NCBI RefSeq assembly: GCF_963675165.1
Contig: NC_087387.1
Coordinates: 5,172,990 to 5,236,989, forward strand
DNA length: 64,000 nucleotides
Direction of reading: 5' to 3'
Source: Halichondria panicea
Taxonomy: Eukaryota > Porifera > Demospongiae > Suberitida > Halichondriidae
Positions 2,991-63,186 of this stretch are shown piece by piece. The stretch's first letter is position 1. Each line of letters begins with the position of its first letter. A program made the position numbers and the translations under genes. The notes beneath the pieces were generated by a model that saw only the letters and a program-made list of their open reading frames with translations, made no database searches and was not told the origin of the DNA.

Positions 2991-3134
2991 AACATAATAA
3001 TTATACTGCAACTATGATCCGATTTCAACATGCAGAGTGAGACATACATTACTGTCAAAAACCATATAATACAGCCTTGCTCTACGTACATAGGGTAGAG
3101 ATAGAGGTAAAAACATGCACACATTACATTACAT

Positions 3135-3193
3135 TAGTCTCATGAATCAGCCGCACCTTTGGACACCAAAGGTGCGGCTGATTCATGAGACTA
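3135..3193. mobile_element. 59-bp perfect foldback element with 9-bp target duplication
   Basis: Two 28-base arms (3135-3162 and 3166-3193) are exact reverse complements around the 3-base loop ACA. The arm begins TAGTCTCATGAATCAGCC. The element is flanked by exact 9-base direct repeats ACATTACAT (3126-3134 and 3194-3202). The paralogous segment at about 4812-4822 lacks it. Termini (TAG...CTA) and TSD length match the other foldbacks of the window. Too short to code for anything. Confidence 0.88.
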
Positions 3194-3478
3194 ACATTAC
3201 ATCCACTGGAAAAAAGAACAAGTGTGTCCACAGGTGCATGCTGACTATACCATCCTCTACTATTTCTTGCCCTTTGATTTGCTCAACTTCACCAGGAAAA
3301 GTTCTTGATAACAATTAATAATTTATGCACAAAGTGCATGGGCTGCGGCTGCTGCTCTAAACTGTATTCTCAGTATAGACATGTGCTGTCAGTGTGTGTA
3401 GGTCTATATACAATGGCTATGTGCTACCACATAGTCACTGTATAACGAGGTATTTTGCACATAATTATGGCTGCCTTA

Positions 3479-3904
3479 CACCGTAATTGATGTAATTACA
3501 GCGCCAGAAAAAATTAATTCCACTTCTGAGTGGCGCATCTTTAGAGCACAAAAAATTGCGTTCAACCCAAGCTGGCGCCTAACAACAGCTAGTATAGAAT
3601 TTGTAGACAAAATGGGCGTGGTCTAGCTCAGTTTCACTTGCAAGCTGCACCGTTAACCCGCGTTGAGAGCTAAATGACTTGTGAACAACGTTCATTGACT
3701 GTAGCTATGGGTTAGACAACTGTTTAGAAGTGAAGGAAGTCAAAAATGAAGGATGATTGTCTTGATGTCTCAAACAAGCTTTTTTATAAGCGCCAGAAAA
3801 AAATAATTCCAACAACGGTTGGCGCTTTTTTGGGACCTAAAAAATTATGCTGATGCTGACGTGGCGGTTAAATTATAGTGGCGCTGTAATTACATCAATT
3901 ACGG
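3479..3904. mobile_element. 426-bp MITE with TA target duplication (Tc1/mariner-like size class)
   Basis: Inverted ends of about 24 bases (CCGTAATTGATGTAATTACA then GCGCC on the left, the reverse complement ending at 3904) enclose non-coding DNA. A sub-repeat starting GCGCCAGAAAAAA occurs at 3501 and 3791. TA dinucleotides flank the element (3477-3478 and 3905-3906), and copy B of the segmental duplication has CCTTATACTG at 5094-5103, which is exactly the empty TA site. This makes the borders secure. Superfamily is inferred from the TA duplication only. Confidence 0.85.
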
Positions 3905-4565
3905 TATACTGTTATCCTCAGTGACCAAGCAGCACAGATTATAGGCTAGTAATATATTCTGTATACTGGAAGTTTAGATCTAAATAATTATTATAGCCAT
4001 TGATTCTCAACTCAACCTCCAATTAGGCTGTACTGTGACTCCACTGCTCAGAATAGACTTCTCTAGGCTAGGGAGGCCCTATATCACTATAGGGGGCCTA
4101 TACCGCTAGTGCAACAGCCCCCCCCCCAACACCCCAAATCGCTAACGTTTTATGGCCGGGGGCGGGGTCCCCCATTTCAGCGCCCCCGGGCCCTAAAACG
4201 CTAGTGATTTGGGGCCCCCCCACGGCCCTATTTCACTAGCGCCCCTCCAGCGATGCCCCCACTTATAACTTGCAGTGTAGATGGTATCTATGCTTGTAGC
4301 CTCAGCCTCATGGTCTAAGTAAATCTAGATGTCCCTTGCTGACTAGATCTTGCACAGTACTTACTCATAATTAGCTCTCTTGCTGACTAAGTGCAGAGTT
4401 TAATAACACCATGACTTGCAGGTGCTATTGGCTAATGTTAGGCTAGCTATACCAGAGCAGGAAGATGTAGATCTATCCTCAATACTTTAACTGAACTCGA
4501 GAAAGTTGTTATTTTATGCCCCTGTTATCAGTTACGGAATAAATTACTGTTCCTTTAACTGGCTC

Positions 4566-4765
4566 NNNNNNNNNNNNNNNNNNNNNNNNNNNNNNNNNNN
4601 NNNNNNNNNNNNNNNNNNNNNNNNNNNNNNNNNNNNNNNNNNNNNNNNNNNNNNNNNNNNNNNNNNNNNNNNNNNNNNNNNNNNNNNNNNNNNNNNNNNN
4701 NNNNNNNNNNNNNNNNNNNNNNNNNNNNNNNNNNNNNNNNNNNNNNNNNNNNNNNNNNNNNNNNN
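4566..4765. other. assembly gap, 200 N
   Basis: Exactly 200 N between the two copies of the segmental duplication; the round size suggests a placeholder. Open frames read across it are meaningless. Confidence 0.98.
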
Positions 4766-5348: not shown

Positions 5349-5457
5349 TAGCCTCAATCCCAGGCCGAGTTTTCGCTTTTATAACGGCTAGGCGAACAAC
5401 TGATCCCAGGCCGAGTTTTCGCTTTTATAACGGTTATGTAAACAACTTTCGAGGCTA
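5349..5457. mobile_element. 109-bp foldback-family element, 10-bp target duplication
   Basis: Begins TAGCCTCAATCCCAGGCC and ends CGAGGCTA. The inner unit CGAGTTTTCGCTTTTATAAC is present twice in direct orientation instead of as a palindrome, so this copy is rearranged. Direct repeats GGGCCGGGGG (5339-5348, 5458-5467) flank it, and copy A has an uninterrupted GGCCGGGGG at 4155-4163. It sits about 110 bases upstream of a kinase start codon. Confidence 0.8.
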
Positions 5458-5517
5458 GGGCCGGGGGCCCCAAAATAAGGGGGGCGCGCTTCTACACCGG
5501 TACCGTGTACCTCATTT

Positions 5518-5527
5518 GCGCATGCGC
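5518..5527. promoter_or_regulatory. GCGCATGCGC palindrome, NRF1-like site, upstream of kinase gene 1
   Basis: The palindrome lies 42 bases upstream of the ATG at 5569. It matches the core of the animal NRF1 consensus (TGCGCATGCGCA). The second kinase-Kelch gene has the same motif close upstream. That it drives transcription is inference. Confidence 0.45.
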
Positions 5528-5568: not shown

Positions 5569-8251
5569 ATGGCTGGTAGAGACAACAGAATCACCGCTCC
5601 CGAATTGGAGCAGTTCATAGTCGCTACAGTTCAGTTGACTGGACGTGTACTAGGAGCAGGTGCTTATGGCAGCGTGGAGGAGGTGGAGATACCTGGAGCA
5701 ACGGTAGCTGCCAAAAAAATGCATCAACAGCTTGTCAACCTGGGCTCTCCACAGCAGGTACAGGTAGCTCTAGCCAGCCATTGGATAATTTATTGCCTCA
5801 CAGGTTAAGAAGTGGGTGACTGATTTTGTGGAGGAGTGTAAGCTGATGAGCCAGCTCCGTCACCCTCATATAGTACAGTTCCTAGGGGTGTGCTATCTGC
5901 CTGGATCGCAACTCCCCGTCTTACTAATGGAGAAGCTACAAACTAGCCTCGATAGTCTTCTAGAAACGAGCCTCAACATCTCTATTGACCTCAAAGTGCA
6001 CCTTCTGACGGGGACTGGCCGAGGGGTGGTCTATCTGCACAGCTGCACTCCACCCATTGCCCATCGTGATCTGTCTGCCAAGAACATTCTAGTCGATAAC
6101 GGTCTCAATGCCAAGATAGCAGACTTGGGTGTTTCAAGAATTGTAAACATTCAGCCTGGCCGGCTAGCTGCCTCGATGACTCAAATGCCAGGCACTGGTG
6201 TGTACATGCCACCAGAGGCAGCTCAAGAGGAAGGAGTTACACAATACAACACTGCCATAGACATCTTCTCCTTTGGTGTAGTATCTCTGTTCACACTGAC
6301 GCAAACCTTTCCAAGAAATCTCAAACCTGCCAGTTATCGGGACTCTGTCACTCGCCTGGTCTTAGGACGAACAGAAGTTGAACGTCGTGAAGATTATATA
6401 CAGCCAATGATAGCAGATCTTGGTGAGAACCATCCCCTTGTCCAGTTGACCCTCAATTGTCTGGAGTATGATCAAGAAGATCGACCATCTGCTGTGGTGG
6501 TGTTGACACAATTGGAGAAGGTTGGAACAACACTCTCTCAGAACTGCACCCAGACCAAGCTGGAACTGATTCAAAAAGTTGCTGCGAAGGATGAAAGGAT
6601 AAAAGATGCTGAAAGAGTTGCCAATGAGAAGCAAGCTCAAATTGCAGCACTGGAAAAATTGCACTTTGAGGAAATCAAACAAAGAGATGCAGGAATTTAT
6701 CCATTTCAGAGTGAAATGTTCAAAGTATCAGGCCAAGTTAACCAACTATTACACCAAATCTCTGTGAAAGATACTCAAAGTATTCGATTGCAATCAGTTA
6801 TCAATGAGAAACAAGAGCAAGTCCGTGGACTGGAAGAGCTGACTACTCTCCAACGAGAGCAGTTGGAAGTTCAACACAGAGAAATTGCTGATCTCTCCAA
6901 TGCCGTGAAGTCTCTACGGATACAGCATCAGGAGGACCAACCTCAGGGCTCAGAGCAGAAAGAGGTGACTGCATTAAATGCAGCTACATATCGGGAGAAG
7001 GCGAGTGGGTTCCCTTTACCGAAGTATAATACGTATTGTATAGGAATTCCTTTTACTGATCAAAGTTGTGTATGCATTGTTCGACGTATATACAATGCAC
7101 TAAAATAGTGATTACACTTATGCACTCACCTTCTCCGTATAGTAAGATCGACGAGCTATAGACATTTAATTGTCATTGTTTATACTGAGACAATACTTCT
7201 GTACAATCTTTGATGAAGTTGATGTACATAAATTATAAGTACAATAACACTCACCACTTTGATATTTATACGCACGTTTTAGTTGTGTGCATGCAGTTAT
7301 TTTAATATCTTGTCTCCATTTGTATTACAGACAATCACAGACAAAGTTCTAAAACCATTCAAGAATGTTACGAGCGCTGGAATTGAAGTGCTACCACACA
7401 AGTCGACCACATCCGTTCCAACCAGCATCACATTCGACTGGAAAAAATGGAAAATACCACGGGGGATGGACGTGACAGATCTACCTGTGGCTATGAATGA
7501 GAAACTGTACATGAGCGGCTGGGGTAGCTGTCCTGAGACGGTGCTAGTGTACACACCAGAACAGGATAATTGGGGTGAACTGCCACCTCCTCCAGTACGC
7601 GGCTTCACCGTAGCAACACTGGGAGGTCAACTGCTAGTGGTTGGCGGTAGAGATGATTCTACTAATGGCAAATACACAAATACCATCCTAACAATCGATG
7701 AGCGCTCTCGACAATGGGTTCAGACACTTCCCCCCATGCCAACTGCATTTCCCAATCCACGCGTACTAGCATATCAGGAGCATTTGATCGTTGTTAGTGG
7801 GGAAAGCGGTCACAAGCATTTAAAAGTAACCATTTACAATCAAGTAATGTGGATTAAGGTTGAACAGCCGAAATTGTCAGGTTTAAGAAGTCCAGTGCTT
7901 ATTGAAGATACACTGTATTTAATTGGAGATGACAATTTCAGTACCGCATTAATATTGCGAGCGCATGTGCCCACTCTCATATCTGGAGCCAAAACTGGAA
8001 TATGGGAAGATTTTCGTAAAACTCTTTACAAGTCGAGCCTGGTTGCTATTGACAACACCCTGATGGCTGTAGGGGGGGTCGATAATGATATTGAACCTGA
8101 ACTAAGACGTGAAAGATACGATATACGTAATCTTAACAGCCGTGCCATAGTCGGTCGCCTCCCTAAGCCAATGAAGCATTGTAAGTGCGCAGTAGTCTCT
8201 GGAAAACTGTTCCTAATTGACGACCTCAGTGAAGTTTATGTCAGTTGCTGA
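5569..8251 (+). CDS. protein kinase - coiled coil - Kelch fusion, gene 1
   Basis: Three exons: 5569-5757, 5804 to about 6964, 7331-8251; about 756 residues. The first intron is only 46 bases. The kinase has the glycine loop GAGAYGSVEE, lysine in VAAKK, catalytic loop HRDLSAKNILVD, DLG in place of DFG (ADLGVSRI), and PPEAA for the APE motif; all core catalytic residues are present, so activity is likely. It resembles TKL-type kinases. A heptad-rich stretch of about 130 residues follows. The last exon holds four to five Kelch blades (LLVVGGR, WVQTLPPMP, TLMAVGG). The exon 2 donor is uncertain: GTGACT after 6964 keeps phase 0; a GC donor after 7000 is an alternative, and reading through ends at 7108 without Kelch. 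The start ATG matches that of gene 2. Kelch propellers usually bind proteins, so a substrate-docking role is plausible. Confidence 0.82.
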
Positions 8252-8552
8252 AAAAACTTGTATAGAAAGTAGTTTTCTTGTTTTTATACGTCTATTCATT
8301 TGCTTGTGATATATATACACAGTGGGCAGCTAAAATGTACAAGCACTGCATGGAGATTGAAAGATGCATTAGTCAATCCATTCCTCTATGCATGCCTGCA
8401 AAATCGGCCTGGGGTTGAGGCTACAGACACAGTATTTTTTTTTCCGTGTAATATCAAAACAATACAAATGTACAAAAGCAACAGACCAAAAGATAAGAGG
8501 GGGGGGGGGGGCATACAGTTTAGCGGATACCATCCGCTGAAGGCGGTATCTT
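8252..8552. other. intergenic stretch after kinase gene 1
   Basis: AT-rich, with a 12-base G run near 8500 and a small hairpin GCGGATACC/GGCGGTATC just before the 8553-9136 element. I see no coding sequence. Confidence 0.6.
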
Positions 8553-9136
8553 AGGCCACAACAAGAGGTAGTTCTGTTTCTGGTCAGGTTGCTTCCCTGA
8601 ATAGGTGAGGCCAGGAGGGACAACAGCAACTGAGCCACACATATTTGCAGTGTCATCACTTTTTTATTTTTCACAGTTTGTCTTTAAAAACGGTTTACAA
8701 TACAATAATAACATCTAAATAACATACAGGAAGAGGTATTTTAGGCTTTGGCAACCAGAACATTGAACTAAGAATTGTCTCTATATCAAACACACCTATA
8801 TAATTATGTCATTGCACTAGCTTGAGCCATTGTACGTGCTCGCTCTGTATCAAAGCAAAAAAGCAAAATGAGACCACATAATTATTGTGTTAGCATAATA
8901 ACATCTTTCATTGCAAATTACAAGATAGTATATACATTAATACAAGATACAAGCACTAGCTTACTGAATATTGAATTGTTGTAGGTGCTGTACATGTAAT
9001 TATTGTAACACCCACTCAATCTAAAGTGAGTGGGTGTGGTTTGCGCATGCGCATTAGGTGTGTTGCTGAAAAAACAGACCAGTGAAATATTGAGCGGCGG
9101 ATGGACCAGAAACAGAACTACCTCTTGTTGTGGCCT
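8553..9136. mobile_element. 584-bp element with 33-bp inverted ends
   Basis: AGGCCACAACAAGAGGTAGT and 13 further bases at 8553-8585 recur inverted at 9104-9136. The interior is non-coding and holds a hairpin ACACCCACTCA/TGAGTGGGTGT at 9008-9036. No clear target duplication was found, so the ends may have decayed. It lies between the two kinase genes, which suggests it arrived after the tandem duplication, as nothing like it precedes gene 1. Confidence 0.7.
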
Positions 9137-9154
9137 TAGGCATGCGCATGCGCA
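9042..9154. promoter_or_regulatory. two TGCGCATGCGCA palindromes upstream of kinase gene 2
   Basis: Exact 12-base palindromes at 9042-9053 and 9143-9154, 148 and 47 bases before the ATG at 9201. They equal the NRF1 consensus of animals. Gene 1 has the 10-base core at nearly the same distance. Conservation of the motif while surrounding promoter DNA differs is the argument for function. Confidence 0.5.
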
Positions 9155-9200
9155 TGTATAGGAATAATCAGTGATCACCCCATTTCTTGCAAGATCAGAG

Positions 9201-13084: not shown

Positions 13085-13679
13085 ACAATTCATTCTTCTT
13101 TAGTTAGAGTTATTTATAAATTATGTCATTCGTGTTCATGGCACAACCTTTTTGTTGTATGTTCAGTGTGTATGTTCAGTGTGTAGAATTATTTTGTGTA
13201 CGATGCATGTCAATGATGCAACGATCATATTTACCTAGTACCTATAGCGATATAATTATTATAAGCTGATTAATTTTATTGTGAACTTGACTAGTACGGG
13301 GGGGGGGGGGGGGCAGACCTTTTCTCAGCTATTTGCCCCCGAACTATTAGCTGGCTAGCCTCGATTCCAGGCCACTCTCAATTGTGAGAGTGGCCTGGAA
13401 TCGAGGCTGAGTTCAAAATTCATATAAGTATCGCCGCCCTCTAATAAAGGTTTTATTTGTTGTTCCCATGATTGGCTGCTATTTATAGTATACGTGTCAG
13501 TGATGCAGCGCAGTAGATCTATTGAGCTTGATTGAGTTTCACAGGTAGGTGTGTCACAGTTAATATTATGTATGGTCATATTACAACCTACTACTACTAG
13601 AGTCTACTATACTACTGCATGAAACTATAAGTGTGCCATCAATTGCTACAAAAACCATTTACACCGTTAGGTTCCAAAA
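13085..13679. other. intergenic stretch with G run and foldback
   Basis: Contains a 15-base G run near 13297, the palindrome 13357-13408, and AT-rich DNA upstream of the membrane-protein start at 13680. No coding sequence recognised. Confidence 0.6.
13357..13408. mobile_element. 52-bp perfect foldback, GCCTCGATTCC type
   Basis: 24-base arms (AGCCTCGATTCCAGGCC then ACTCTCA) around the loop ATTG are exact reverse complements. Same terminal sequence as the elements at 26564, 51557 and 53074. I find no target duplication here, so the flanks may have changed. Confidence 0.72.
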
Positions 13680-19797: not shown

Positions 19798-20384
19798 TAG
19801 ACTTGCCAGCCAGCGGCCCTTCCTCGGGGTAAGGGACTGGCCTATCTGAGTGCGTTACCTGAATCTGGTAATGACCAATCAGAGTGCAGTATCGATGTCA
19901 TGTGACATTCTTACGCCCACAGTATTGCTTAGTTAATTTCTTTGTGGTAGAATGCATGATAATAACAAAATAATGGATGGGCAAGACTGTGCTAGTGCAA
20001 GATTAAGCGACCAAGCAGAGCTTATCAATCAAGCTGCAATTGAGACAAATCCTCCAGTGACTTTAGTATGTAAATGATTTGCACCACTTGTCTTACATTG
20101 GAGAAAATCTTTCCAGTCTGGGGATGGAAAGGGCTTGACAGTATAGCCTTCTACCACCAGTCTGATTGAGACTGTCTCAATGTTTCTTGGTTTCTCTGCC
20201 ACAAACTAAGCAAGGGGAGCTTATTTGTAATTGTGCTATTTGCAACCCACGCATATCAGACATTACAAACCACATGATGATGTCATACATATGTCATGCA
20301 ACTCATTAAAATTCCACCTGCACAACTCTCAGATAGGCAATCCACCAGTCCCTTACCCCGAGGAAGGGCTGGCTGGCGAGTCTA
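19798..20384. mobile_element. 587-bp element, TAGACT ends, 9-bp target duplication
   Basis: Inverted ends of about 55 bases: TAGACTTGCCAGCCAGC on the left, the complement of TAGACTCGCCAGCCAGC on the right, continuing through CCCTTCCTCGGGGTAAGGGA. Exact direct repeats CTAGGATAC flank it (19789-19797, 20385-20393). The interior is non-coding. The TAG terminus and 9-bp duplication place it with the small foldbacks; MULE-like is the best superfamily guess. Confidence 0.85.
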
Positions 20385-25411: not shown

Positions 25412-25611
25412 NNNNNNNNNNNNNNNNNNNNNNNNNNNNNNNNNNNNNNNNNNNNNNNNNNNNNNNNNNNNNNNNNNNNNNNNNNNNNNNNNNNNNNNNN
25501 NNNNNNNNNNNNNNNNNNNNNNNNNNNNNNNNNNNNNNNNNNNNNNNNNNNNNNNNNNNNNNNNNNNNNNNNNNNNNNNNNNNNNNNNNNNNNNNNNNNN
25601 NNNNNNNNNNN
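25412..25611. other. assembly gap, 200 N
   Basis: Exactly 200 N. It begins where the duplicated block would continue into the Death-domain/caspase-like gene (GAGGTATAAA junction, as at 47431). Confidence 0.98.
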
Positions 25612-26554: not shown

Positions 26555-27034
26555 GGATGAAATTAGCCTCGATCCCAGGCCGATCTGTCTCTAATTGAAC
26601 GCTAGGTCGCCTCCTTGGCCTGGTATTGATTGTATCTGGGCGTTATCTGGGCGTGACCGGAAACTGGTAAGTATCAGCTATGTACTGTAAAATCTTCAGT
26701 TCATCACAGTTGCTAAAAATACAGTGATATAATGATATGACACTAGAAATTAATACTGTGCACAGCAGTACTGCGTCCATAATAAATGCAGATGTTTAGA
26801 AGCGAAGATCTCAAACAAGAGCTTCCAGAAAGACTTAATAATTAGAACAAAGATTATGTGTTCACAGTGCATCAAGAGAGTAGAATCCTGACGTCACTGG
26901 TCAGGATAGCAACCACAAGTGTTGAAATAGCCATTCCACGTCAGTAGTTTTAGTGCAGGTAGTTCTATAAGATCGGACCCTTGGGAAGGACACGAGTGGC
27001 ACTGGGGCATCCTCTTTCAATGAGTTCACACCCA

Positions 27035-27434
27035 TCAACTAGGAAGAGTACGACGGGGGTTGGAGGGGAAGGTTCCATTTTGCTCCTGTATACAAATTAG
27101 TATGAACTTAAATTCACCATTCCACTATACATTTTGTAACTCACAGTGATGGTCCACACAAAACTAGCCACGATCCCAGGCCGCACTTCCTTGAAGGCCG
27201 GTGAAGGAGGCTAACACAACACCAGTGCCAGTGCCGTAATGTCATATCTTGATCCAGATACCAAGGATTGGGCTATAGGCTATAGTGTAAAATTTCCAAT
27301 GATGAAAGGGTATTATTGATTTATATCGCTCACCTTGACAATACATCCCAGGCCCAGCCACTTGTGGACACCCCTGAGCATAGTATACAAGAGATCGATG
27401 GCCAGAGTCTGAGGATAGACTCTACCAAGTGTAT
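27035..27434 (-). pseudogene. two exon-like blocks captured in the 1309-bp element
   Basis: Minus strand. Block 1 (27434 to 27334) is bounded by CAG and GTGAGC and reads TLGRVYPQTLAIDLLYTMLR then GVHKWLGLGCIVK. Block 2 starts at 27085 after TATACAG and continues in phase 0 (EQNGTFPSNPRR) to a stop at about 27035. Another frame of block 2 is open for 37 codons. The protein is not recognised. A 49-bp foldback sits in the intron between them. Whether it is expressed cannot be judged from sequence. Confidence 0.45.
27165..27213. mobile_element. 49-bp TAGCC foldback nested in the larger element
   Basis: Begins TAGCCACGATCCCAGGCC, ends GGCCGGTGAAGGAGGCTA. Flanks ACACAAAAC and ACACAACAC agree at 8 of 9 bases. 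Among the shortest of the family seen here. Confidence 0.65.
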
Positions 27435-27989
27435 CTGGCAATCAATGGTCTAATCAAGCGCTTGTATTAAATTGTGTAGTCAATCAAAAGTAGCCACTGA
27501 TAGCAGAAACTTGAGAACCTAGGTCTGTTCTTTCACAAGAGTGATGCTCCTTCTTCCTTCGCACAAGACAGCTCCTCACACTCTAGCTAGCTAAGCCTAT
27601 ATCTATGACAAACTAAACTTGCAAAGAATAGACCTATGACACGGAGTTCTTTGTGATTTAACGGTGATTTTACGGAGTAAGTATGCTTACATACACTATT
27701 AGTGTTTCTATTCGCTCCACCTTGCTCAGGTATTCGCTCTTTTTTAGCGAATACCTGAGCAACCACAGCAACCACAGCACATGCCCAGATACACGCCCAG
27801 ATACAATCAATACCAGGCCGAGGAGGCGACCTAGCGTTTAATTAGAGACGGATCGGCCTGGGATCGAGGCTAGGATGAAATCTGCTGCCCCACCATCCCA
27901 CCTCAAACGGTCCCTTATATAGGCTCCTTCCTTTTAGACTAGTTGTGGGAAGCAAAACTAATCAAAACACCATGTCTGTTATCTATAGA

Positions 27990-51547: not shown

Positions 51548-51556
51548 GCATCCAGG

Positions 51557-51661
51557 TAGCCTCGACCCCAGGCCGATCCGTCTCCAATTGAACGCTAGGT
51601 CGCCTACTAGTATTTTTCAACTTTGTTCTATTAAAAAAAAATCGGCCTGGGACCGAGGCTA
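51557..51661. mobile_element. 105-bp TAGCCTCG element, 9-bp target duplication
   Basis: Starts TAGCCTCGACCCCAGGCC, ends GGCCTGGGACCGAGGCTA. Exact duplications GCATCCAGG at 51548-51556 and 51662-51670. The left half carries the GAACGCTAGGTCGCC segment also seen near the ends of the 1309-bp element, so this is an internal-deletion derivative. Confidence 0.88.
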
Positions 51662-51670
51662 GCATCCAGG

Positions 51671-52497
51671 ATGCTTCGTAAGATCTCCTGTAGACCTAAT
51701 GAGTGCCGAATGTGGCCTCATGGCTGTAACTAACTGGAATCTCACAATTAGTGTGATCAATAATTATTTTACTGTTTGTACATGTATTGAACTGCACTTG
51801 TGTTTATCATAACTAAAAAAATGAAAGCACCGCGGGTGCTGATGCCTCGGTGGAGGTGCCAAAGCTACATAACATAAAACTACTAATAGCTGGCTTTTAT
51901 ACACACATTGATTATTATTATCATGATGAACATCTTTTATTTTGCTGCATGCAATCAACCGAATAGTGGGTAATGATCAACCATGATTGTTGTTAAAAAA
52001 GGTCGATGCCAAAAGTTCAAGTCTAAAATTAATGGCTGCAAGTCAACAGAGCCTTTCAGCTCTCTGCTCACTCTTGCAGCTACCAATAGATAGTGTTCTA
52101 GTGCAGAGCTAACTACTAAGTAGAGTAGTAACACTCGGTGAACAAGTTTTGCTACGGACTCTTCCGAAAAGGCTGCAATGGCATTCCAAGTAAGCAAAAC
52201 TAGGCATAACTCGAGAACGAAGCATTATTTTGCAAATCCACGAATTAAGATCCAAGTAAACATGACTAGAAGCCTATAGAAACTCTTACTTGCACTTGAT
52301 TCATCCTTGAGCAGCTGTAGCGGTCTACACACACACACACACACACAGACACACAAACACACTACCCGTATACCTCGCTTGCGCATGCGCACCGAGGCAT
52401 AAAAATCAGCCCTTACGTAATGCATTTGTTGGCTTCCCAGCCTCTCCCCTTCTCCGCAGCAAGCTGAGCTTTGTGGTTAGAGGCGCGGTTAATATTA
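51671..52497. repeat. intergenic with dispersed 350-bp repeat
   Basis: 52044-52400 is related to 34650-34990: GCTCTCTGCTCACTCTTGCA, GTGCAGAGCTAACTACTAAG, TGACTAGAAGCCT, a CA tract and GCGCATGCGCACCGAGGCAT. Nothing coding. Confidence 0.65.
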
Positions 52498-53329
52498 TAG
52501 AGGTTATGCAGATCCGCCCACTTCCGGCCAAAACTCCCTAAAACTCATTAATTAGGGGGCGTGGTTACATACGTCCGCCATTTTGAGTGGCAAAAAGCAC
52601 GAGTGGCAAGCAGTAGCAATGTTATTTGCAAAAGTTTGCAACTCTACTATGGCTGAGTGTGATGCAGGGAGAGTCTCCAACTACTTTCAAGAACTAGAAA
52701 ATAGGGTGCTATAAAGCTATCATGTCAAGAAAAGGAGCATAAACAACAAGACAATGGATAAACCATGCAAACCAATTGACTGAATTGTAGATTTATAGAG
52801 CTGCACACACATGTTTGTCTATTGCACTGATTTCTGTTTCCATATCATGTTTATGTTCAGTATCTCTGGAGAGAGAGCGTCTTGACTCTTTCTGCCTGTG
52901 ATAGAGTGAATAACAAAACGGTAGTTTTGCAACTTTTATGCTCCCCATTCTTTCTCTTGACTGCAGCTAACCATCAACTATAGCGTTCTAGATATAGAAG
53001 AAAGCAATACAATGATAGTCTTGATCCTTTAGAGTGTCTGATTGCATTACCAACAGTGTAGCAGCTCTAACCGTAGCCTCGATCCCAGGCCGAGTTTTCG
53101 CTTTTATAACGGTTAGGCGAACAATTCGCCTAACCGTTATAAAAGCGAAAACTCGGCCTGGGATCGAGGCTACTCTAACCGTAGCTCAACTTTTAGCATG
53201 TAGCCTACGTATCAAGGTACTTTTTGCCACTCAAAATGGCGGACATATGTAATCACGCCCCCTTTCCAAGAGTTTTTATGTGGCCACACCCCTTTTTGGC
53301 AGGAAGTGGGCGGATCTGCATAACCTCTA
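52498..53329. mobile_element. 832-bp element with long inverted ends and TA duplication
   Basis: Ends TAGAGGTTATGCAGATCCGC and complement, continuing for about 115 bases including GTCCGCCATTTTGAGTGGC. TA at 52496-52497 and 53330-53331. Contains the nested 99-bp foldback. No transposase frame seen. Confidence 0.8.
53074..53172. mobile_element. 99-bp perfect foldback, 9-bp target duplication
   Basis: 48-base arms are exact reverse complements around CAA; the arm starts TAGCCTCGATCCCAGGCC. Exact duplications CTCTAACCG at 53065-53073 and 53173-53181. Nested in the 52498-53329 element. Perfect pairing and exact duplications suggest youth. Confidence 0.92.
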
Positions 53330-54167
53330 TAGTTAGTGGCTGCAACCTGACTCTTTGGAGGCGGGCCACGCCCATCTAGACAACAGCATCGATGATGACG
53401 CAGTGACTGCTCTTATTACGTATTTACCTTCGCATTGAGGAATGGATATTGATCTAGATGATAATCTCGTGAGTACAGAGACATCGACATTTGAAGGTAA
53501 GACCACAGTAAGTGTATTGTATGAAAAGAATACTTTGAGGAAGGCATCATTATTATAGCACATGCAGAGTCCCCTTTAATTTTTGGTATAACGTATACTA
53601 CACATATAATTGACACTCTAGATGATAGTTTATATACCGTATAGCGGGTATATTTCGAGGGTATAAATTTTCGCGGATGAACCTCTATAAAGGATTTTGC
53701 GGAGTTTATTTTCGTGGTCTGAGTTTCAGCCTTTTGGCGCATGCGCACATCAACTGCAGCTGTGCCTCCACACCATTAGCCTCGAATCCAGACCTAGCCT
53801 GTATGAATGCCAGAGGTAAAAGTACTTACATTGTCTGAGTGTATGACCTGCTGTATCATGCATGATGTTAATTCTTGTTACGAACAATAATTGCCAATTT
53901 CATCTGTCAATTTGCTGTATACTGTCATACCCTTTTTGATCTAAAAGTCGTAAAATGCATGCGTTCACTGATGGATGTAATATTTATACATGTCTCCTTG
54001 CAATCACAGCACACTAGTACTAATTCTATTAGTGAGGATACGGACTTTAATTAAAGCTACTGATGAAGATCTGAATGCACTAAAGGAGGATATGTCCCCT
54101 ACAGCTAGTCAGGATTCCACAGCTGCTACTGATATTTCCAAACTAACCAGCCAAAAACAACAGCTAC

Positions 54168-54532: not shown

Positions 54533-57500
54533 TCACCGAATTGGTATGCTTGCCGGCTGTGCAGGTAGTTCCTCTGTGTCGGGAACTGATTCCGGATACG
54601 CCTCTTCTTGACTTGGTGTGCAGTCTCCTTCTTGAAGAGGCATTTCCATGGTCTCAGGGGCATCTAGGATATGCCTTCGGTTCCGTTCGAATGTACCGCG
54701 TTCTGTTTCAACTTGGTACCGCCGGGGACCCACTAATCCAGAGCATACTGCAGGTGTCCACTTGCTTTGCCCCGGTAGCTTCATTCGCACAGCATCTCCA
54801 CCTCTTAGTGGTTTCAGTACCTTTCCTTGATGATCATAGTATTTTCTTTGTTTGGCTTTTTGCTTGTTGATATCATCCGCATCCTGGGTTGTTGAGTACT
54901 TTGGTTTGAGTAAACTTCCCGTCATTGGAAGTCTTGTCCGACACCGTCTACCCAGGAAGCGTTGAGCGGGGCTTGTTGTCATTCCCTCTGAAGGTGTATT
55001 TCTCCAATCTAGCAAAGCTAGAAATTCCAATTTGCGTGATTCTCGACATTTCTTAAAGAGGCGTTTCACTGTTTTAACGGCATTCTCGGCCTTGCCGTTT
55101 GACTGTGGGTATCGGGGTGATGATGTGATGTGCTCAAAATTCCACTGCTTTGAGAATTTTGCAAACTCTTCGGATGCAAATTGGGGTCCGTTGTCCGAGA
55201 TCACAATGTCAGGTACCCCATACCTAGCAAACATTGACTTTAGAGCCTTTGTGACATCGCCTGATGTGGTTTTGTTGAGATTCTCTACCTCAATGTAGTT
55301 GCTGAAGTAATCAGTGACCACGAGTAGCGTGCGTCCATTCAGTTTGCAGAGATCTGCCCCAACCTTGTTCCAGGGTCTGGCGGCAAACTGGTGTTGGGCA
55401 AGTGGTTCTTGGCTCTGCTCAGGTCGGTATGATAGGCAGATATCGCATTTGGATATATATTCCTTCAGTTCCGTGCTCATTCGAGGCCAGTACATGCATT
55501 CTCTTGCCCTACGAAGACAACCGTCAATGCCAATGTGCGTCTCATGGACGACTTCCATCATTTTCTTTCTCAAGGGGCGAGGTATGACTAACTGTGTGCC
55601 CTTGAAAACTAGTTCGTCTTGTACCGTGAGTTCGTCACGTATGTCGAAATAGGGGTGGACCAATTCTGTAACTTCGGACTTGGAGTCTGGCCAGCCTTGT
55701 CGGATGGTGCTACTAAGCGCTTGGCTTACATGGTCTTGTCCGGCCACTTGTTTTAGCTCTTGTAGTTGGTCTTCTGGAATAGCCAATGTCATGGTGTGAT
55801 CAACTTCTTCCAGAGACAGAACAAAATCACTTGTGTTCATCGTCGGAAGGAATGCTCTGCTCAGTGTGTCAGCAAGGAACATATCTGGCCCTTTCTTGTA
55901 TATCACCTTCAGATTGAAGTTCTGCAGTCTGAGCAGCATTCTCTGCAGCCGATTCGGTGCTTTGTTGAGGGGTTTGAGTGCAATTGGCACTAGCGGCTGG
56001 TGATCAGTTTCCACAGTCACGGCTTCTCGCCCATAGACGTAATACTCAAAATGCTCACATGCAAATACAATGGCCAACAGCTCCTTCTCGATTTGGGCAT
56101 AGCGGGTTTCTGCCTCTGTAAGAGCCCGTGAGGCATAGGCCACGGGTTGTCCATTCTGCATAAGTGCTGCGCCTAACCCAAACTGTGAGGCGTCACACTG
56201 GAGGGTGACTTCTTCTTTCACATTGTAGTATCTCAACACCGGCGTCTTTGTGACATTTTTCTTAATTGTCTCGAATGCTTCCTGTTGAGTAGGTCCCCAG
56301 TTCCAAACTGTTTCTTTTTGGGTGAGTTCTCTCAGAGGCTTCGTGACATCGCTGAGGTGAGGCATGAATTTGCTGAGATATTGTACAAACCCTAACAGTC
56401 GCTGTACTGCTGCAACATCTTCGGGTGTCGGCATATCCCGGACTGCCTGAACTTTGTGTGGATCCACTTGGAGCCCTTGGGCGGTGGCTACGTGTCCAAT
56501 GAAGGGTACTTTGGGAAGTCTCAGTCGGATCTTACTCGCATTCAGCTTTAAGTAGCGTTCCTTGCATCGTTCCAGAAAAGCCATCAGGTTCTGATCGTGA
56601 TCTGCAGTTGCCTGTTCTTCAGTACGGCCAAATCCCACTACAATGAAGTCATCAGCTATGACTTCAATTCCTTTGAGGCCCTCAATCACCTCATGCATCT
56701 TCCGCTGGAATACCTCGGGTGCTGAAGAAATTCCAAATGGCGAACGTTTCCATCGGTATCGGCCAAATGGGGTGTTGAAGGTAGTAAGTCGGGACGAGTC
56801 TTCATCCAATGGGATGTGCCAGAATCCATTTCTGACATCCAAAATGGAGAAACACTTTGCTCCATATAAGCGTGTTGCAATTTCCTCAATTGTTGGTAGG
56901 GGGTAATGTTCTCTTTGGACTGCTTTGTTTAATTCTTTGGGATCCAAACAAATACGCAATTTTCCGTCCTTTTTGGGGACTACTACTACAGAGCTTACCC
57001 ATGGGGTTGGTTCAGTTACTGAGGTGAGTATGTCTTGGTTCTCGAGGTCTTCGAGGGTCGACTTCAGACGGTCTCGAAGTGCCACAGGCACCTTTCTGGG
57101 TGGATGTTGGACTGGTGCCTGTTGTGGGTCAATCCGTATGTGGTACTCTCCTTCAAGGCAACCAACTCCTTCCTTAAACACTTGGGGGTACAGTTCGATC
57201 AGTTCCGTTTGTGTAACAGGTTGTTTTCCAGTGCTTACTGCATATACCGAGGCTCCACCCGTATCTGGTTTGTTCAATGAATCATTGTCTAGGTACGTAA
57301 CCACGTTCATACCTATGCACGCTTTCCGTCCCAGGAGTGGTCGCATCTGGATTCCATCTACCAGCTTACAGTCTATACGGTGTTTCGCTTTTCCCCTCCG
57401 AACACTAAGGATTATCTTTCCCACCACTGGAAGAGTCGAACCGCCATAGGCGACTATCTTGCCCGTGGTTTTCGTGATGTTCTTTAGGTATGGGTCTTTA

Positions 57501-58435
57501 GCGGCTTTCTTGTACACGTCCACTGGTATTACATTGCACTGAGCTCCTGTGTCAGCTTGAAACCGCATGAAGTTTCCACTCTCCAGTTTTAGTGTTATGA
57601 GCTGTGAGTCGTCGGGATCGTGTGCTAGAGCACTTGTGTGGTAAACTTCGTCTTCACTGTCTTGTTCTTCCACTTGTTTGATCGAGGCTGACTGACCCTT
57701 CTGGCGACACTTCACGGCAAAATGGTTTAGTTTGTGGCATTTGTTGCAGGTCTTGCCAAATGCTGGGCATGATTCTTTTGTACGGAATGCGTGTTTTCGG
57801 CCACACATCCAACATTCCTTCACCTTTCGTCGATCCTCTTCCGTAGTTTTTCTGACTGAGTGTATTGCCATCTCTTGAGGTTCTACTAGCTTCAGTTGTT
57901 GTGATGTACTTTCTGCTGCTCGGCAAATTTCATCAGTTTTTTGTAAAATGAGATTCGACTCTCGCAGTAGTCTCTCACGCACCTTGGCATCTCGTATGCC
58001 AAAAACCAAACGGTCTCTAAGTATTTCGTTTGGTGTTATTGTACCAAATCCACACTCAGCTGACAACTTCCTCAATGCTGTCCGGTAGTGATCGTATGCT
58101 TCTGTGGCTTCTTGTGTTCTGCGGTTAAACTTATACCGCTCGAATGGTATGTTCTTTCTTGGTTCGCAGTATGCCTGGAATTTCTCTAACACTCGGTTTA
58201 TGAGTGTTGAATCACCAGCAGTGTCCCAAGTGAACGTCGAGTAGACCTCTCGTGCTTCCTCGCCAATCACTGTCAACAGCGTAGCCACCTGGACTGACTC
58301 ATCTTTGGTGTTCAATGTCGTGGCTATAGAGTAGTTGCTCCAGGCTGCCTTGAATCTTCTCCACCTCTCTCCGGCTTGTGCATCGTGTATTTCCAATGCT
58401 GTGGGTGGTGGTAGCATGTAGCCACCAGCAGCCAT
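54533..58435 (-). CDS. Gag-Pol polyprotein of the Gypsy element (1300 aa)
   Basis: One open frame from ATG 58435. In order: capsid-like Gag (about 1-200), zinc knuckles (CWMCGRKHAFRTKESC, CNKCHKLNHFAVKC; about 210-250), aspartic protease (FQADTGAQCNVIP; about 293), reverse transcriptase (LRICLDPKELNKA, FGISSAPEVFQRKM, VIADDFIVVG with the DD pair; about 440-640), RNase H (LQCDASQFGLGAAL, VETDHQPL; about 740-860), integrase with HHCC zinc finger (HETHIG, CDICLSYRP) and DDE core (GADLCKL, ISDNGPQF, NGKAENAV; about 1000-1150), then a chromatin-facing C-terminal tail. Gag and Pol are fused without frameshift. All catalytic residues I looked for are present, so the element may be autonomous. No envelope frame. 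Confidence 0.95.
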   Translation of the reverse strand: MAAGGYMLPPPTALEIHDAQAGERWRRFKAAWSNYSIATTLNTKDESVQVATLLTVIGEEAREVYSTFTWDTAGDSTLINRVLEKFQAYCEPRKNIPFERYKFNRRTQEATEAYDHYRTALRKLSAECGFGTITPNEILRDRLVFGIRDAKVRERLLRESNLILQKTDEICRAAESTSQQLKLVEPQEMAIHSVRKTTEEDRRKVKECWMCGRKHAFRTKESCPAFGKTCNKCHKLNHFAVKCRQKGQSASIKQVEEQDSEDEVYHTSALAHDPDDSQLITLKLESGNFMRFQADTGAQCNVIPVDVYKKAAKDPYLKNITKTTGKIVAYGGSTLPVVGKIILSVRRGKAKHRIDCKLVDGIQMRPLLGRKACIGMNVVTYLDNDSLNKPDTGGASVYAVSTGKQPVTQTELIELYPQVFKEGVGCLEGEYHIRIDPQQAPVQHPPRKVPVALRDRLKSTLEDLENQDILTSVTEPTPWVSSVVVVPKKDGKLRICLDPKELNKAVQREHYPLPTIEEIATRLYGAKCFSILDVRNGFWHIPLDEDSSRLTTFNTPFGRYRWKRSPFGISSAPEVFQRKMHEVIEGLKGIEVIADDFIVVGFGRTEEQATADHDQNLMAFLERCKERYLKLNASKIRLRLPKVPFIGHVATAQGLQVDPHKVQAVRDMPTPEDVAAVQRLLGFVQYLSKFMPHLSDVTKPLRELTQKETVWNWGPTQQEAFETIKKNVTKTPVLRYYNVKEEVTLQCDASQFGLGAALMQNGQPVAYASRALTEAETRYAQIEKELLAIVFACEHFEYYVYGREAVTVETDHQPLVPIALKPLNKAPNRLQRMLLRLQNFNLKVIYKKGPDMFLADTLSRAFLPTMNTSDFVLSLEEVDHTMTLAIPEDQLQELKQVAGQDHVSQALSSTIRQGWPDSKSEVTELVHPYFDIRDELTVQDELVFKGTQLVIPRPLRKKMMEVVHETHIGIDGCLRRARECMYWPRMSTELKEYISKCDICLSYRPEQSQEPLAQHQFAARPWNKVGADLCKLNGRTLLVVTDYFSNYIEVENLNKTTSGDVTKALKSMFARYGVPDIVISDNGPQFASEEFAKFSKQWNFEHITSSPRYPQSNGKAENAVKTVKRLFKKCRESRKLEFLALLDWRNTPSEGMTTSPAQRFLGRRCRTRLPMTGSLLKPKYSTTQDADDINKQKAKQRKYYDHQGKVLKPLRGGDAVRMKLPGQSKWTPAVCSGLVGPRRYQVETERGTFERNRRHILDAPETMEMPLQEGDCTPSQEEAYPESVPDTEELPAQPASIPIR

Positions 58436-58500
58436 TGTCACTCTTCGTATTTGGTGTCTATGGCTAGGGCTGTCGTCTACACTGTTTCTTGGACCTCCTT

Positions 58501-58520
58501 GAATCCCACCGCTGCCACCA
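58501..58520 (-). other. primer-binding site, tRNA-Leu type
   Basis: Just inside the 5' LTR; the plus strand reads GAATCCCACCGCTGCCACCA, the 3' end of animal tRNA-Leu with CCA. This fixes the priming tRNA and the element's orientation. Confidence 0.85.
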
Positions 58521-58643
58521 TGTAACGTTAGTATGCTATCTCAGGCTACTCAAGATCAAGTAGACTTAACTGCCATAGAACACGAGGACTGGTCCCCAGA
58601 CCAGTCTATATATAGATCTCACAAATCATAAGATAACGTCACA
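58521..58643 (-). repeat. 5' LTR of the Gypsy element, 123 bp
   Basis: Twin of 54168-54290 with no difference seen. The adjacent exon remnant GCTACAAA and donor GTAAGC follow at 58644. Confidence 0.93.
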
Positions 58644-59624: not shown

Positions 59625-59680
59625 TTGCCTCGAACCAGGCCACTTTAGAAGACGCTTTTCCCTGCGGCCTGGGTAGGCAA
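59625..59680. mobile_element. 56-bp foldback inserted in the Death-domain exon
   Basis: Begins TTGCCTCGAACCAGGCC, ends GGCCTGGGTAGGCAA. Exact duplications AGAGCTCTG at 59616-59624 and 59681-59689. Removing the element plus one duplication restores the Death-fold frame, so borders are certain. The ends differ at base 2 (TTG, not TAG) from the main family. Confidence 0.88.
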
Positions 59681-60091: not shown

Positions 60092-62466
60092 CAGGGGCAG
60101 ATCCAGGATTCTTGATAGGGAGGAGCTAAAAATCTTTTAACTCACGTACAATGTGTTTCCTGCATGACTCATCAATAATTGTTCATGCTCAGTAATAAAC
60201 TGGGTGTGGCCATGATAATGTAACCGTAGCTACGTGCTATCCAGTGCATGCAGTGTGTTGATAGCAGTCGAACGGCCAAGGCAGTTTTTTAATTAAAAAC
60301 AGGAAGTGCTTCCTGTCACTCAATCTGGCTTGTGGTTTTGAGCTTGTAAACTTGCAATGACTTCTACCTACTATATTATATTTGCACATACTATTTATGC
60401 CAATATCATATGCTATTCATATTCTATAGAATGTGTGCTTTTTAAAGAGTCTAAAATGATAGCTACACAGTCATCTATCAGCACACAGTTGGCATTGTTT
60501 GATGGTTACTAACATTTTGTGGTTTTGACCTACCTCCACACTAAGCGTTATAAAATCAGTTCCCAATATGCTATTGACTGGAGACTTGGAATATCATTAG
60601 TTTAATAGCTAAGCATGAAACTGATCGAACGTTGTGCTGTTTTACAGACAGTATTTATTATAGAGCCTACCCATAATTGCTCACTATAAGTGGGTAATTT
60701 GACACACAACTCAATGCTTGTTGGCCAAACAACAATATGTAAGGTGCATATGATACATTTCAACAAACACAGAAGGTAATAAGAATAAATGTTTGTCTAG
60801 AAGTAGTGTTGGAGTCTCACAGCGGTGATGTCCTGTCATTCAGAGGCTTGATATCACCTACAATGTATAAAAGCGAGAATTGAATATAACTGTGATAATA
60901 CACACTGTGTTTTTTACCCTCCTAACCATCAACATACTGAACGGCTTGAAAGAAATTTATCTATAATTATGTGCTTGACTCCAAACCCTGAAAGTATTAA
61001 TCATGCAACGTGAAGAAAGCAACACATTCATTTGTATATATATATTCATATTGTATATACTTCAGCCGCTTTTGTGACTCGAGAATGATTCTTTTATTAA
61101 TTCTTTGACAGGTTAGCCTCTTTTTTGGACAGATTCAACAGAAGCCCCAGGCAGCATAAGTAATACAATAGACTACATGTAGTCAAGCTGCATGTTGCAG
61201 TGAGATGTATACCTATATCAAGAAACTATGGATTTATGAAATCTTTTCCCCACAAAAGTGTGTTTGGATACTTCTAGTTAATTTACACGGGGCACAGCGA
61301 ACAGTAGACTCTCGTTAATCTGGCCGCCCTTGGGACAATGCAGCTTCACCGGAATAGCGAGGTGGCTGTATTTCAGAAAATAACCACGGCTAAAAAAACG
61401 ACCCTACCTCGAATCTAAAGACAAATTTTGCGGTATCAGTATACTCTATATACTTAAGTGTAATCCAATTTTATCTTCTATACCAAAACGTCATATCCGG
61501 CCATAATAAAATACCTAGTTTGGGGAAGCCAGTAACTGGCCAGTATATAAGGAATAGCGAGTGGCCGCATTTCAGGGCGAGTGTTGTCCAGTAAACATCT
61601 ATATATAGCCAGCAATCTGTGCCAAACCAAATGACCGGTATATCGAGGTGGCCGTACATCAGACAGCCAGAGTCTATACAGTAAATACGGGACAGAATTT
61701 GGACTCTAATACACCATGATACCTTTTTGTGACTTGTCCAGATACTGGAAGAGAGTGAGCACAATGGGTATCCTCAGTGTATGTTCACAAGAAAATAGCG
61801 AATATCTTCAGTGGTGATTGACATCAACGCTGAGGACATTGAACAATTGTATCACTGAAGCAAATGAAACCATGTATAAACTATTATACACAATTCATGG
61901 TATATACATGACAGTCACTGTGCAGGTTTTATGCAGTCAGCCCAGTCAACCACACACTAATTAATGCTGTTTTATGACCACTCATAACTTTTAATTCATG
62001 CATGGAAACAGGATGAATATAAATCTAAAACAAGTAAGAAGCTTACTTTTACAGTACTCATTGATCAGATCTGCTTCATATGCTTGGGAACTGAAAATAT
62101 AACGCTGGTAGCTACCGCACTAAAATGTAGTTGTCTTCTTTGACACTGTGTAGTGTGGCTTCTGTAAGAGCATTTGCCTCGAGTGATGCCTCAAACTGTA
62201 GCTCTTGTGATGGATACGATAGTCACAGTTCCTCTAGAATATTCTCTTCTGCACAATGCAGTACTGAAGTCAACCCTCTTTCTCGAACTAACTCAACCAA
62301 TGATGTAATGCATAATGCATACTTAAATAAGTGTACGGCATTTACATTGAACTTCCGGGTCTTGGCCGTTCGACTGATAGCTAGCTCTAGATTCTATTCT
62401 TCAGGCTTGTCATCAAGGCCAGGGGGGTGCTCAAGCCCCCAAAGCTCCCCACTGGATCCGCTACTG
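60092..62466. mobile_element. about 2.4-kb hAT-like element remnant
   Basis: Left end CAGGGGCAGATCCAGGATTC, right end the complement of CAGTAGCGGATCCAGTGGGG; CAGGGGCGGATCCAG is a typical hAT terminus. Subterminal inverted motifs GTCGAACGGCCAAG (60267) and CTTGGCCGTTCGAC (62362) support the pairing. Only TCTAT is shared by the flanks, so the 8-bp duplication is not intact. A minus-strand frame near 62130-62330 (ELQFEASLEANALTEATLHS) may be a relic of coding DNA. The interior is otherwise non-coding and holds a pogo-like MITE. Confidence 0.55.
61302..61683. mobile_element. pogo/Tigger-like MITE, second copy
   Basis: CAGTAGACTCTCGTTAATCT at the left; right end worn (CCAGAGTCTATACAGTA). Internal tracts GGCCGTAC, ACGTCATATCCGGCC and TGTAATCCAATTTTAT match the 43480 element. 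Confidence 0.75.
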
Positions 62467-62894
62467 TCTATATAGTATGCTTTTAAAATACACAATTAAT
62501 AATACTATTACAGTATAATATTATACTGACCTCCAATTGATGGCAGATGTCACATGACTTAAGAAATACCTACTACCATCCTAAATTTTCCTGCGTTACC
62601 TTGAAGCACCCAGATTTCTCCCCAGCTGAATTAATAATGGACAAAGAATTGCTTCAGCCTTGTCATTTGGATTTGTTTTGTACTGAGTTTGGTCTGCATG
62701 AGTTTGAATGTCGTTTGTGTAACTGTTTTTGTACTGAACTTGAGTTTTTTTGTGTAACTATTTTTATACTGACATAAGTTTTCTGTACTTTGCAGTATAG
62801 TTATTGTTGGCATTGGTTGTCAATGAAATAATAATAACTATGTAGATCGTTTTTGGACTATAGACCTCTGCGACCATGTCCGTGTCTATGTCCG
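62467..62894. other. intergenic, nothing recognised
   Basis: AT-rich; short frames only. The repeated TTTGTACTGA/TTTTTGTGTAACTG units at 62676-62775 are a weak internal repeat. Confidence 0.45.
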
Positions 62895-62984
62895 GTGTCC
62901 GTGTCCGTGTCCGTGTCCGTGTCCGTGTCCGTGTCCGTGTCCGTGTCCGTGTCCGTGTCCGTGTCCGTGTCCGTGTCCGTGTCC
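62895..62984. repeat. hexamer array (GTGTCC) x 15
   Basis: Fifteen perfect head-to-tail GTGTCC units, with degenerate units just before. Open frames of alternating D-T or R-T on the minus strand come only from this repeat. Not a telomere motif of animals (TTAGGG) and not a CRISPR array. Confidence 0.95.
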
Positions 62985-63066
62985 TGCTTTTCCATGCACC
63001 CACCATGATCTAAACAAAGCTGCATGGGAGAATCCCTTGCTTGCATATAATTATATTGGACTGTGT

Positions 63067-63177
63067 CAGAGGAGGTACGACAGGCGTGGTGCAGCTCAAG
63101 CAATTAGCCTCAATTCAGCTATAACACAGGGCGTGGGCGGATAATTAGTATTCACTGTGCCTGTCGTACCTCCTCTG
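63067..63177. mobile_element. 111-bp foldback element, 9-bp target duplication
   Basis: Perfect 19-base inverted ends CAGAGGAGGTACGACAGGC. Exact duplications GGACTGTGT at 63058-63066 and 63178-63186. Inside lies TTAGCCTCAATTCAGC, a piece of the TAGCC family. Different ends, same duplication length. Confidence 0.85.
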
Positions 63178-63186
63178 GGACTGTGT

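What the first reader, a model, noticed from the sequence alone, without database searches (positions are those of the whole stretch)
3126..63186. A clan of ultra-short foldback transposons with 9-bp target duplications
Eight elements share exact or near-exact 9-bp (once 10-bp) flanking duplications: 3135-3193, 5349-5457, 19798-20384, 26564-27872, 27165-27213, 51557-51661, 53074-53172, 59625-59680, plus 63067-63177 with other ends. Most begin TAG and end CTA; lengths run from 49 to 1309 bp. The 9-bp duplication is seen directly. MULE-like transposition is inferred from duplication length. Elements this short, with almost no loop, are unusual: they are nearly all terminal repeat.
Basis: partly seen in the sequence, partly recalled or inferred. 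Interest (0 to 1): 0.88.

Follow-up and report, generated by a model that had tools for sequence, protein, structure and literature searches.

The report
Ultra-short foldback transposons, mostly just ends
This genome carries tiny transposon copies, 36 to 68 bases long and made almost only of the two transposon ends, most of them flanked by their own nine-base insertion scar; they seem to arise when longer elements lose everything between their ends.

Summary
In detail: the listed elements are inverted-repeat insertions flanked by 9-bp (sometimes 10-bp) target duplications. The end TAGCCTCGATCCCAGGCC occurs 5,750 + 5,833 times genome-wide (reversed control 8 + 9). In 288 kb examined, TAG...CTA pairs had 9-bp duplications 21 times (18 without re-counts), 10-bp twice, 8-bp never.

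Beyond the finding: copies of 36-68 bp with exact 9/10-bp duplications lie at 20 distinct sites; four 59-bp copies are letter-identical at sites with different duplications. Lengths are bimodal: in one family 18 listed pairs are 58-66 bp and 21 are 292-320 bp, none between; in another 8 are 58-68 bp and 8 are 543-3,491 bp, none between. Short copies are fusions of the two ends of the longer form, joined at a family-specific distance from the tips, with several to many different junctions.

Best reading: non-autonomous cut-and-paste transposons that repeatedly collapse to their two ends; at least one collapsed form probably then moved as a unit. MULE origin is unproven: MULEs here make 9-bp duplications too, but 0 of 6 clusters with resolved ends (of 13) has TAG ends. 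A 3,491-bp copy with perfect ends is the best lead to the transposase.

The parts
3135..3193 (.). Family A ultra-short element, 59 bp, 28-bp arms and 3-nt loop, duplication ACATTACAT
5349..5457 (.). Scrambled family B copy, 109 bp, exact 10-bp duplication
13356..13409 (.). 54-bp clan palindrome (right end CTG instead of CTA), no duplication
19798..20384 (.). 587-bp element, ends TAGACTYGCCAGCC, duplication CTAGGATAC
26564..27872 (.). 1,309-bp element, 80-bp inverted ends 96% alike, duplication GGATGAAAT
27165..27213 (.). 49-bp element nested in 26564-27872, duplication 8 of 9, seen again in L111
50929..53378 (.). 2,450-bp element, ends TAGATGRGCGTGGCCCGCC, duplication GACAACAGC; host of the next two
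51557..51661 (.). 105-bp element, duplication GCATCCAGG, nested
53074..53172 (.). Family B short element, 99 bp, 48-bp arms and 3-nt loop, duplication CTCTAACCG, nested
59625..59680 (.). 56-bp element with TTGCCT ends, duplication AGAGCTCTG
63067..63177 (.). 111-bp element with CAGAGGAGG ends, duplication GGACTGTGT; a relative in L023 also has 9 bp

Best explanation
These are non-autonomous cut-and-paste DNA transposons of one clan (ends mostly TAG-N-CTC..., 9-bp, sometimes 10-bp, target duplications). Shown: families A and B have a longer non-coding form (317 bp and about 1.1 kb) and an ultra-short form that is its two inverted ends fused, the joint lying 27-34 bp (A) or mostly 40-55 bp (B) from each tip; families A and C show no lengths between the short and the long class. 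Shown: short forms lie between their own exact duplications at many sites, and one 59-bp form has the same junction at 8 target sites. Inferred: transposase holds both ends, the DNA between them is lost, and the ends are joined at the edge of what the protein covers; the collapsed form is inserted as a unit, at once or in later rounds. Such an element would not need to bend its two ends together. The transposase is unidentified.
For: Exact 9/10-bp duplications at 20 distinct sites for copies under 70 bp (list). The 59-bp unit at 8 target sites, 4 copies identical letter for letter. Two-state lengths: 18 pairs of 58-66 bp against 21 of 292-320 bp; 8 of 58-68 bp against 8 of 543-3,491 bp. Eight junctions among 20 family A copies, each with 0-2 shared letters; about 12 centres among 15 family B copies. 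Long forms have the same kind of duplication and short and long share a purine-first target taste (68 of 92 ends, p = 5e-6; 37 of 54 and 30 of 36).
Against: No transposase with these ends was found. Most family B short copies have their own centre, which collapse in place also predicts. The same 59-bp junction could recur because it has 2 shared letters. A variant letter (G10A) shared by 59-bp copies at two sites (L125, L126) is also present in a 292-bp copy, so it does not prove amplification of the short unit. Of 20 short family A copies 5 lack a good duplication (8/9, 7/9, 7/9, 5/9, 3/9). The joint distance differs between families (27-34 and 40-55 bp), which a single protein footprint does not explain by itself. 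The 28-letter search pattern sets the lower arm limit in family A. In family B one 708-bp copy lies between the classes.
Confidence: 0.55

Rival explanations
1. Collapse in place: only the longer elements move; after insertion the interior is lost by end joining or aborted gap repair, leaving the two ends between the old duplication. The ultra-short copies never move.
For: Many different junctions, mostly one per site in family B, and 0-2 shared letters in family A; end segments repeated as in template switching (5349-5457, L002).
Against: One 59-bp junction at 8 target sites, 4 copies identical; a 99-bp junction at two sites (L147, L148); no intermediates in families A and C; short family B copies have 10-bp duplications more often than long ones (7:6 against 10:1 for 9:10 bp, Fisher p = 0.078).
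Confidence: 0.25
2. Ordinary MITE bursts: a few short masters formed once each and were copied many times; different centres are later mutations.
For: Four identical 59-bp copies; same junction in L143 and L077, in L139 and L140, in L134-L136.
Against: Eight junctions in family A and about 12 centres in family B that are joins at different places, not point changes.
Confidence: 0.15
3. Hairpin or single-strand movers (REPIN/IS200-like): the foldback itself is the mobile form.
For: The 59- and 99-bp forms fold almost perfectly, -34.7 and -63.5 kcal/mol as DNA.
Against: Such movers make no 9-bp duplications (recalled knowledge); members hundreds of bases long share the ends and duplications; 27165-27213 and 59625-59680 fold weakly.
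Confidence: 0.03
4. The mover is a MULE: the clan are MULE MITEs driven by a MULE present in this genome.
For: MULEs here make 9- or 10-bp duplications; published range 8-11 bp (PMC6446971, passages). This concerns the transposase and can be true together with the best explanation.
Against: 0 of 6 MULE clusters with resolved ends has TAG ends; 7 of 13 are unresolved; no PF10551 or PF21056 match inside the 3,491-bp copy.
Confidence: 0.45

Closest known systems
Tm1 Mutator/Foldback family of root-knot nematodes (PMC3169594; abstract and passages seen)
   Same: Mostly 9-bp duplications (8-10 bp in 45 of 53 complete elements), foldback ends, many MITE-like deletion derivatives.
   Different: Tm1 ends are composite with an internal ~14-bp repeat and end in other letters; clan ends here have no tandem repeats, and the short forms are two ends fused.
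MITEs in general (PMC6171319; passages seen)
   Same: Non-coding, inverted ends, target duplications, many copies.
   Different: Given there as generally 50-800 bp; here down to 36 bp, with a two-state length distribution.
Yeast mitochondrial GC42 palindromic clusters (PMC4478555; passages seen)
   Same: Mobile palindromes of about 42 bp flanked by short direct repeats.
   Different: Mitochondrial; the direct repeats there are AG or ACT, not 9 bp.
Rehavkus and Phantom MULEs (PMC6446971; passages seen)
   Same: 9-bp (Rehavkus) or 8-10-bp (Phantom) duplications; a minisatellite beside the transposase, as in the 9-kb element found here.
   Different: The TAG clan itself has no minisatellite and no known transposase.

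Membership tests
MITE (non-autonomous TIR DNA transposon) | Inverted ends and target duplications of fixed length | tested here: met
MITE (non-autonomous TIR DNA transposon) | No coding capacity | tested here: met
   No frame of 120 aa or more lies inside the listed window elements; tblastn with 139 frames from transposase loci found no remnant in 8 longer elements
MITE (non-autonomous TIR DNA transposon) | Shares ends with an autonomous element | tested here: inconclusive
   Only a lead: 3,491-bp copy at C16:2989248-2992738 with perfect ends and an 8-of-9 duplication; interior not read
MULE superfamily | Target duplication of 8-11 bp | tested here: met
   9 bp mostly, 10 bp sometimes; range from PMC6446971 passages
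MULE superfamily | MULE-type DDE transposase in an element with the same ends | tested here: inconclusive
   0 of 6 clusters with resolved ends; 5 searched without result, 2 not extended
Foldback (FB/Tm1 type) | Long inverted ends built of tandem repeats | tested here: not met
   Clan ends show no tandem repeats by eye; the separate 9-kb MULE does have them
Introners (PMC9860276, passages seen) | Insertion creates a spliced intron in coding sequence | not tested
   No transcript data were available

The most novel reading that the evidence does not exclude
Loop trimming inside the transposition complex: while a transposase holds both ends of an excised element, the DNA between them is degraded to the protein's edge and rejoined, and the resulting two-end micro-transposon (down to 36 bp) is inserted with a normal 9-bp stagger. 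This would be a standing route by which transposons lose their whole interior in one step, and would explain transposons too short to bring their ends together by bending.
Probability: 0.3. Interest if true: 0.82.

Novelty: new variant of a known kind. Interest (0 to 1): 0.62.

Why it matters
How MITEs arise, and how short a DNA transposon can be, are open questions. Here two families show a two-state length distribution and two show many different end fusions, and units of 59 and 36 bp carry intact target duplications. That makes the birth of minimal elements testable by comparing individuals, and suggests a natural lower size limit for a transposase that pairs its ends. Repeat finders with a 50-bp floor would miss part of the class.

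Tried and rejected
Transposase hunt: PF10551, PF20700, PF12762, PF01609 and PF21056 were searched in the whole genome, and ends were sought in the loci fetched by inverted-repeat plus duplication scans. No gene with TAG...CTA ends and a shared duplication was found; only some of the listed gene matches were fetched with both flanks. The PF20700 gene L066 lies between TACAGTAGACTCTCG ends without a direct duplication. Other transposase superfamilies (hAT, P and so on) were not searched. Protein remnants: 139 reading frames against eight longer clan elements gave only matches to short clan copies lying inside two of the frames. The clan end in bacterial and viral collections: 2 and 0 exact hits; two is about what chance gives for a 19-mer in 257 billion bases (the estimate is mine). 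L098 looked like inverted flanks but is an insertion near the centre of another palindrome. TAG ends 77 and 99 bp beyond the two 9-kb MULE copies are not their ends: no matching duplication on the left in the stretch held. A library or assembly palindrome artefact is unlikely because it would make no target duplications (inference). Papers: searches; in the titles listed and passages read I saw no description of 36-68-bp two-end nuclear transposons, which is not proof of absence.
Full report
THE OBSERVATION. The nine intervals were read back. Seven have exact 9-bp flanking duplications, one (5349-5457) has an exact 10-bp duplication, and one (27165-27213) matches 8 of 9. A scan of the window found six 9-bp elements against 0, 0, 0 in three block shuffles, and added 50929-53378, 2,450 bp. 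Genome-wide (131 Mb, 39 contigs) the 18-letter end TAGCCTCGATCCCAGGCC has 5,750 forward and 5,833 reverse matches at up to 3 mismatches; the same letters read backwards have 8 and 9. Over 43 stretches totalling 288 kb, TAG...CTA pairs gave duplications of 9 bp 21 times, 10 bp twice, 7 bp once, 5 bp three times, and 6, 8, 11, 12 and 13 bp never; 3 of the 21 are re-counts. The stretches were partly chosen for the ends or for transposase genes.

A SAMPLE OF SITES. Of 48 sites with the exact 18-letter end, all on contig C1 and + strand (40 fetched for this, and L001-L008), 11 had a right end with a duplication (6 exact at 9 bp, 3 exact at 10 bp, 2 with 1-2 mismatches), 8 had a right end without one, and 29 had no right end within the stretch. 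Sixteen of the 29 fall into two sequence groups, which I take to be the 1.1-kb form in its two orientations; for these a 45-letter stretch near the expected right end gave 7 exact 9-bp duplications, 1 exact 10-bp, 1 at 8 of 9, and 7 with none found. In one of the seven (L113) the stretch began at the duplication, so the element's right end itself was not seen.

ONE CLAN. Ends vary (TAGCCTCG, TAGTCTCA, TAGTCTCG, TAGACTCG, TAGATGRG) but share TAG, the 9-bp stagger and the target taste: in 46 hand-compiled duplications the outer position is a purine on 68 of 92 ends (p = 5e-6); hand-sorted, 37 of 54 for short and 30 of 36 for long elements. 63067-63177 has other ends (CAGAGGAGG) but also a 9-bp duplication, as has its relative in L023. 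That one transposase serves all of them is inference.

ULTRA-SHORT COPIES. Family A (3135-3193) is 59 bp: two 28-bp arms and a 3-nt loop. The 59-letter unit occurs at 9 places with at most 3 mismatches, control 0. Flanks show 8 target sites, seven with exact 9-bp and one (L123) with exact 10-bp duplication; L122 (8 of 9) has the same left flank as L126 and is counted with it. Four copies are identical in all 59 letters at sites with four different duplications (window, L119, L120, L121). A 36-bp form, two 18-bp ends with no loop, occurs at 8 places with at most 3 mismatches, control 0. Six share the target GCAACTTCC with the same flanks, an insertion inherited inside a MULE family (5 exact, L131 disturbed); in L014 a 57-bp relative sits at the same target. 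One more (L127) lies at its own target, ATTGTATCT, exact; the eighth (L128), a perfect palindrome, has no duplication. Counting copies under 70 bp with an exact 9- or 10-bp duplication among those I examined gives 21 copies at 20 target sites (list).

TWO STATES, NOTHING BETWEEN. The 28-letter family A end has 58 forward and 55 reverse matches at up to 2 mismatches, control 0. One hundred of the 113 are listed; they form 39 pairs: 58 bp x4, 59 x7, 60, 61 x3, 62 x2, 66, then 292, 303, 307, 312, 316 x2, 317 x13, 319, 320; 22 listed ends stay unpaired. A third family, C (end TAGTCTCGCGAGCAGCCGTCGAAGGG; 23 + 24 matches, control 0), gives 16 pairs: 58, 59, 64, 64, 65, 68, 68, 68, then 543, 551, 623, 624, 624, 632, 1,129 and 3,491 bp; 15 ends stay unpaired. 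The long family A form is about 317 bp; of 3 read, 2 have exact 9-bp duplications and one 8 of 9. Family B is less clean: besides about 100 bp and about 1.1 kb, a 708-bp copy without duplication was seen (L005).

WHAT THE SHORT COPIES ARE. Aligned to the two arms of the long form, all 20 short family A copies consist of 27-33 bp of one arm and 28-34 bp of the other, with 0-2 shared letters at the joint and 8 different junctions. The 59-bp junction, with 2 shared letters, is the commonest. In family B, 15 short copies were aligned to the 1.1-kb form, whose inverted ends reach 86 bp in L076. Fourteen keep 40-55 bp of each arm; L102 has a damaged right end. There are about 12 different centres, counting four near-identical ones as one; overlaps run from 3 shared letters to several extra ones, and L002 has about 20 extra. 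Copies such as 5349-5457 and L002 repeat end segments, as template switching would. So the short copies are end-to-end fusions made many times. Of the 20 family A short copies, 13 have exact 9-bp, 1 exact 10-bp and 1 exact 8-bp (L137) duplications; 5 do not: L122 8 of 9, L136 and L140 7 of 9, L138 5 of 9, L139 3 of 9. Of the 15 family B short copies 7 have exact 9-bp and 6 exact 10-bp duplications; L102 and L104 do not.

MECHANISM. Two orders of events fit: collapse before or during insertion, or collapse in place. For insertion as a unit speak one junction at 8 sites and a tendency of short family B copies to 10-bp duplications (9:10 = 7:6, against 10:1 for long family B, Fisher p = 0.078, and 31:1 for the others compiled, p = 0.0012). 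That comparison is hand-compiled, was made after seeing the data, leaves out 5349-5457 (10 bp; with it p = 0.042), and one 9-bp case (in E21) sits in a 9-bp tandem array. For collapse in place speaks the uniqueness of most family B centres. I prefer collapse of transposase-held ends followed by insertion. The joint lies at a family-specific distance from the tips although the inverted ends run further, and families A and C show no intermediates, which random internal deletion would leave. That a protein sets the distance is inference. The lower limit of arm length in family A is set by the 28-letter pattern; the missing 67-291-bp class is not.

WHO MOVES THEM. MULE genes in this genome (31 PF10551 matches; 30 loci in 13 clusters) make 9- or 10-bp duplications, but the six clusters with resolved ends have CGCTGTG (two), GGGRTTGGCT (two; 10 or 8 bp), GGGATWGACTAAG (10 bp) or ACAAGTGGCTAAATGC ends. 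The last is a 9.0-kb element (8,961 and 9,038 bp, duplications GTGTTTTAG and TGTTTCTAG) with an intact 809-aa MULE frame and inverted arms of 9-bp minisatellite. One Merlin-type locus (L075) has an 8-bp duplication and other ends. The 3,491-bp family C member has perfect 26-letter ends and flanks ACCATCGAC/ACCATTGAC, and none of the five families searched has a listed match inside it.

KNOWN RELATIVES. Tm1 of root-knot nematodes (PMC3169594, abstract and passages) is closest in duplication length and in its MITE-like deletion derivatives; MITEs are described as generally 50-800 bp (PMC6171319, passages); yeast mitochondrial GC42 (PMC4478555, passages) is closest in size. MULE duplications are 8-11 bp, and Rehavkus has 9 bp and a minisatellite (PMC6446971, passages). 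I class this as a new variant of a known kind.

Noticed in passing
L019 with flanks (C2:973549-982509) and L021 with flanks (C8:3134831-3143868): Two copies, about 98% alike, of a 9-kb foldback MULE with inverted arms of a 9-bp minisatellite, an intact 809-aa MULE frame and a 285-aa frame on the other strand that looks to me like a P-loop ATPase. The C2 copy lies just upstream of a PRPF6-like coding stretch (both names are mine, from the letters).
   Followed up: partly
L014 positions 222-341 (C17): A 57-bp and a 36-bp clan element side by side at one target: GCAACTTCC-element-GCAACTTCC-element-GCAACTTCC, as if the duplication of one was reused as the target of the other.
   Followed up: partly
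window 54533-58540, minus strand: A 1,335-aa open frame with reverse transcriptase, RNase H and integrase domains, a Ty3-like retrotransposon by its domains.
   Followed up: no
window 5789-11699, plus strand: Two neighbouring frame pairs, each a protein kinase followed by a Kelch-repeat protein, alike in order and size: a tandem duplication.
   Followed up: no
window 4566-4765 and 25412-25611: Two 200-base stretches read N; nothing was inferred about them.
   Followed up: no
C16:2989248-2992738: The longest clan member found, 3,491 bp with perfect 26-letter ends and an 8-of-9 duplication, a candidate for the autonomous element.
   Followed up: partly
L012 with flanks, position 6673 in gene orientation (C1): A TAGCCTCGATT end directly abuts the 9-bp duplication (TAGAAATAT) of a CGCTGTG-type MULE, as if the clan element used the same target.
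   Followed up: no
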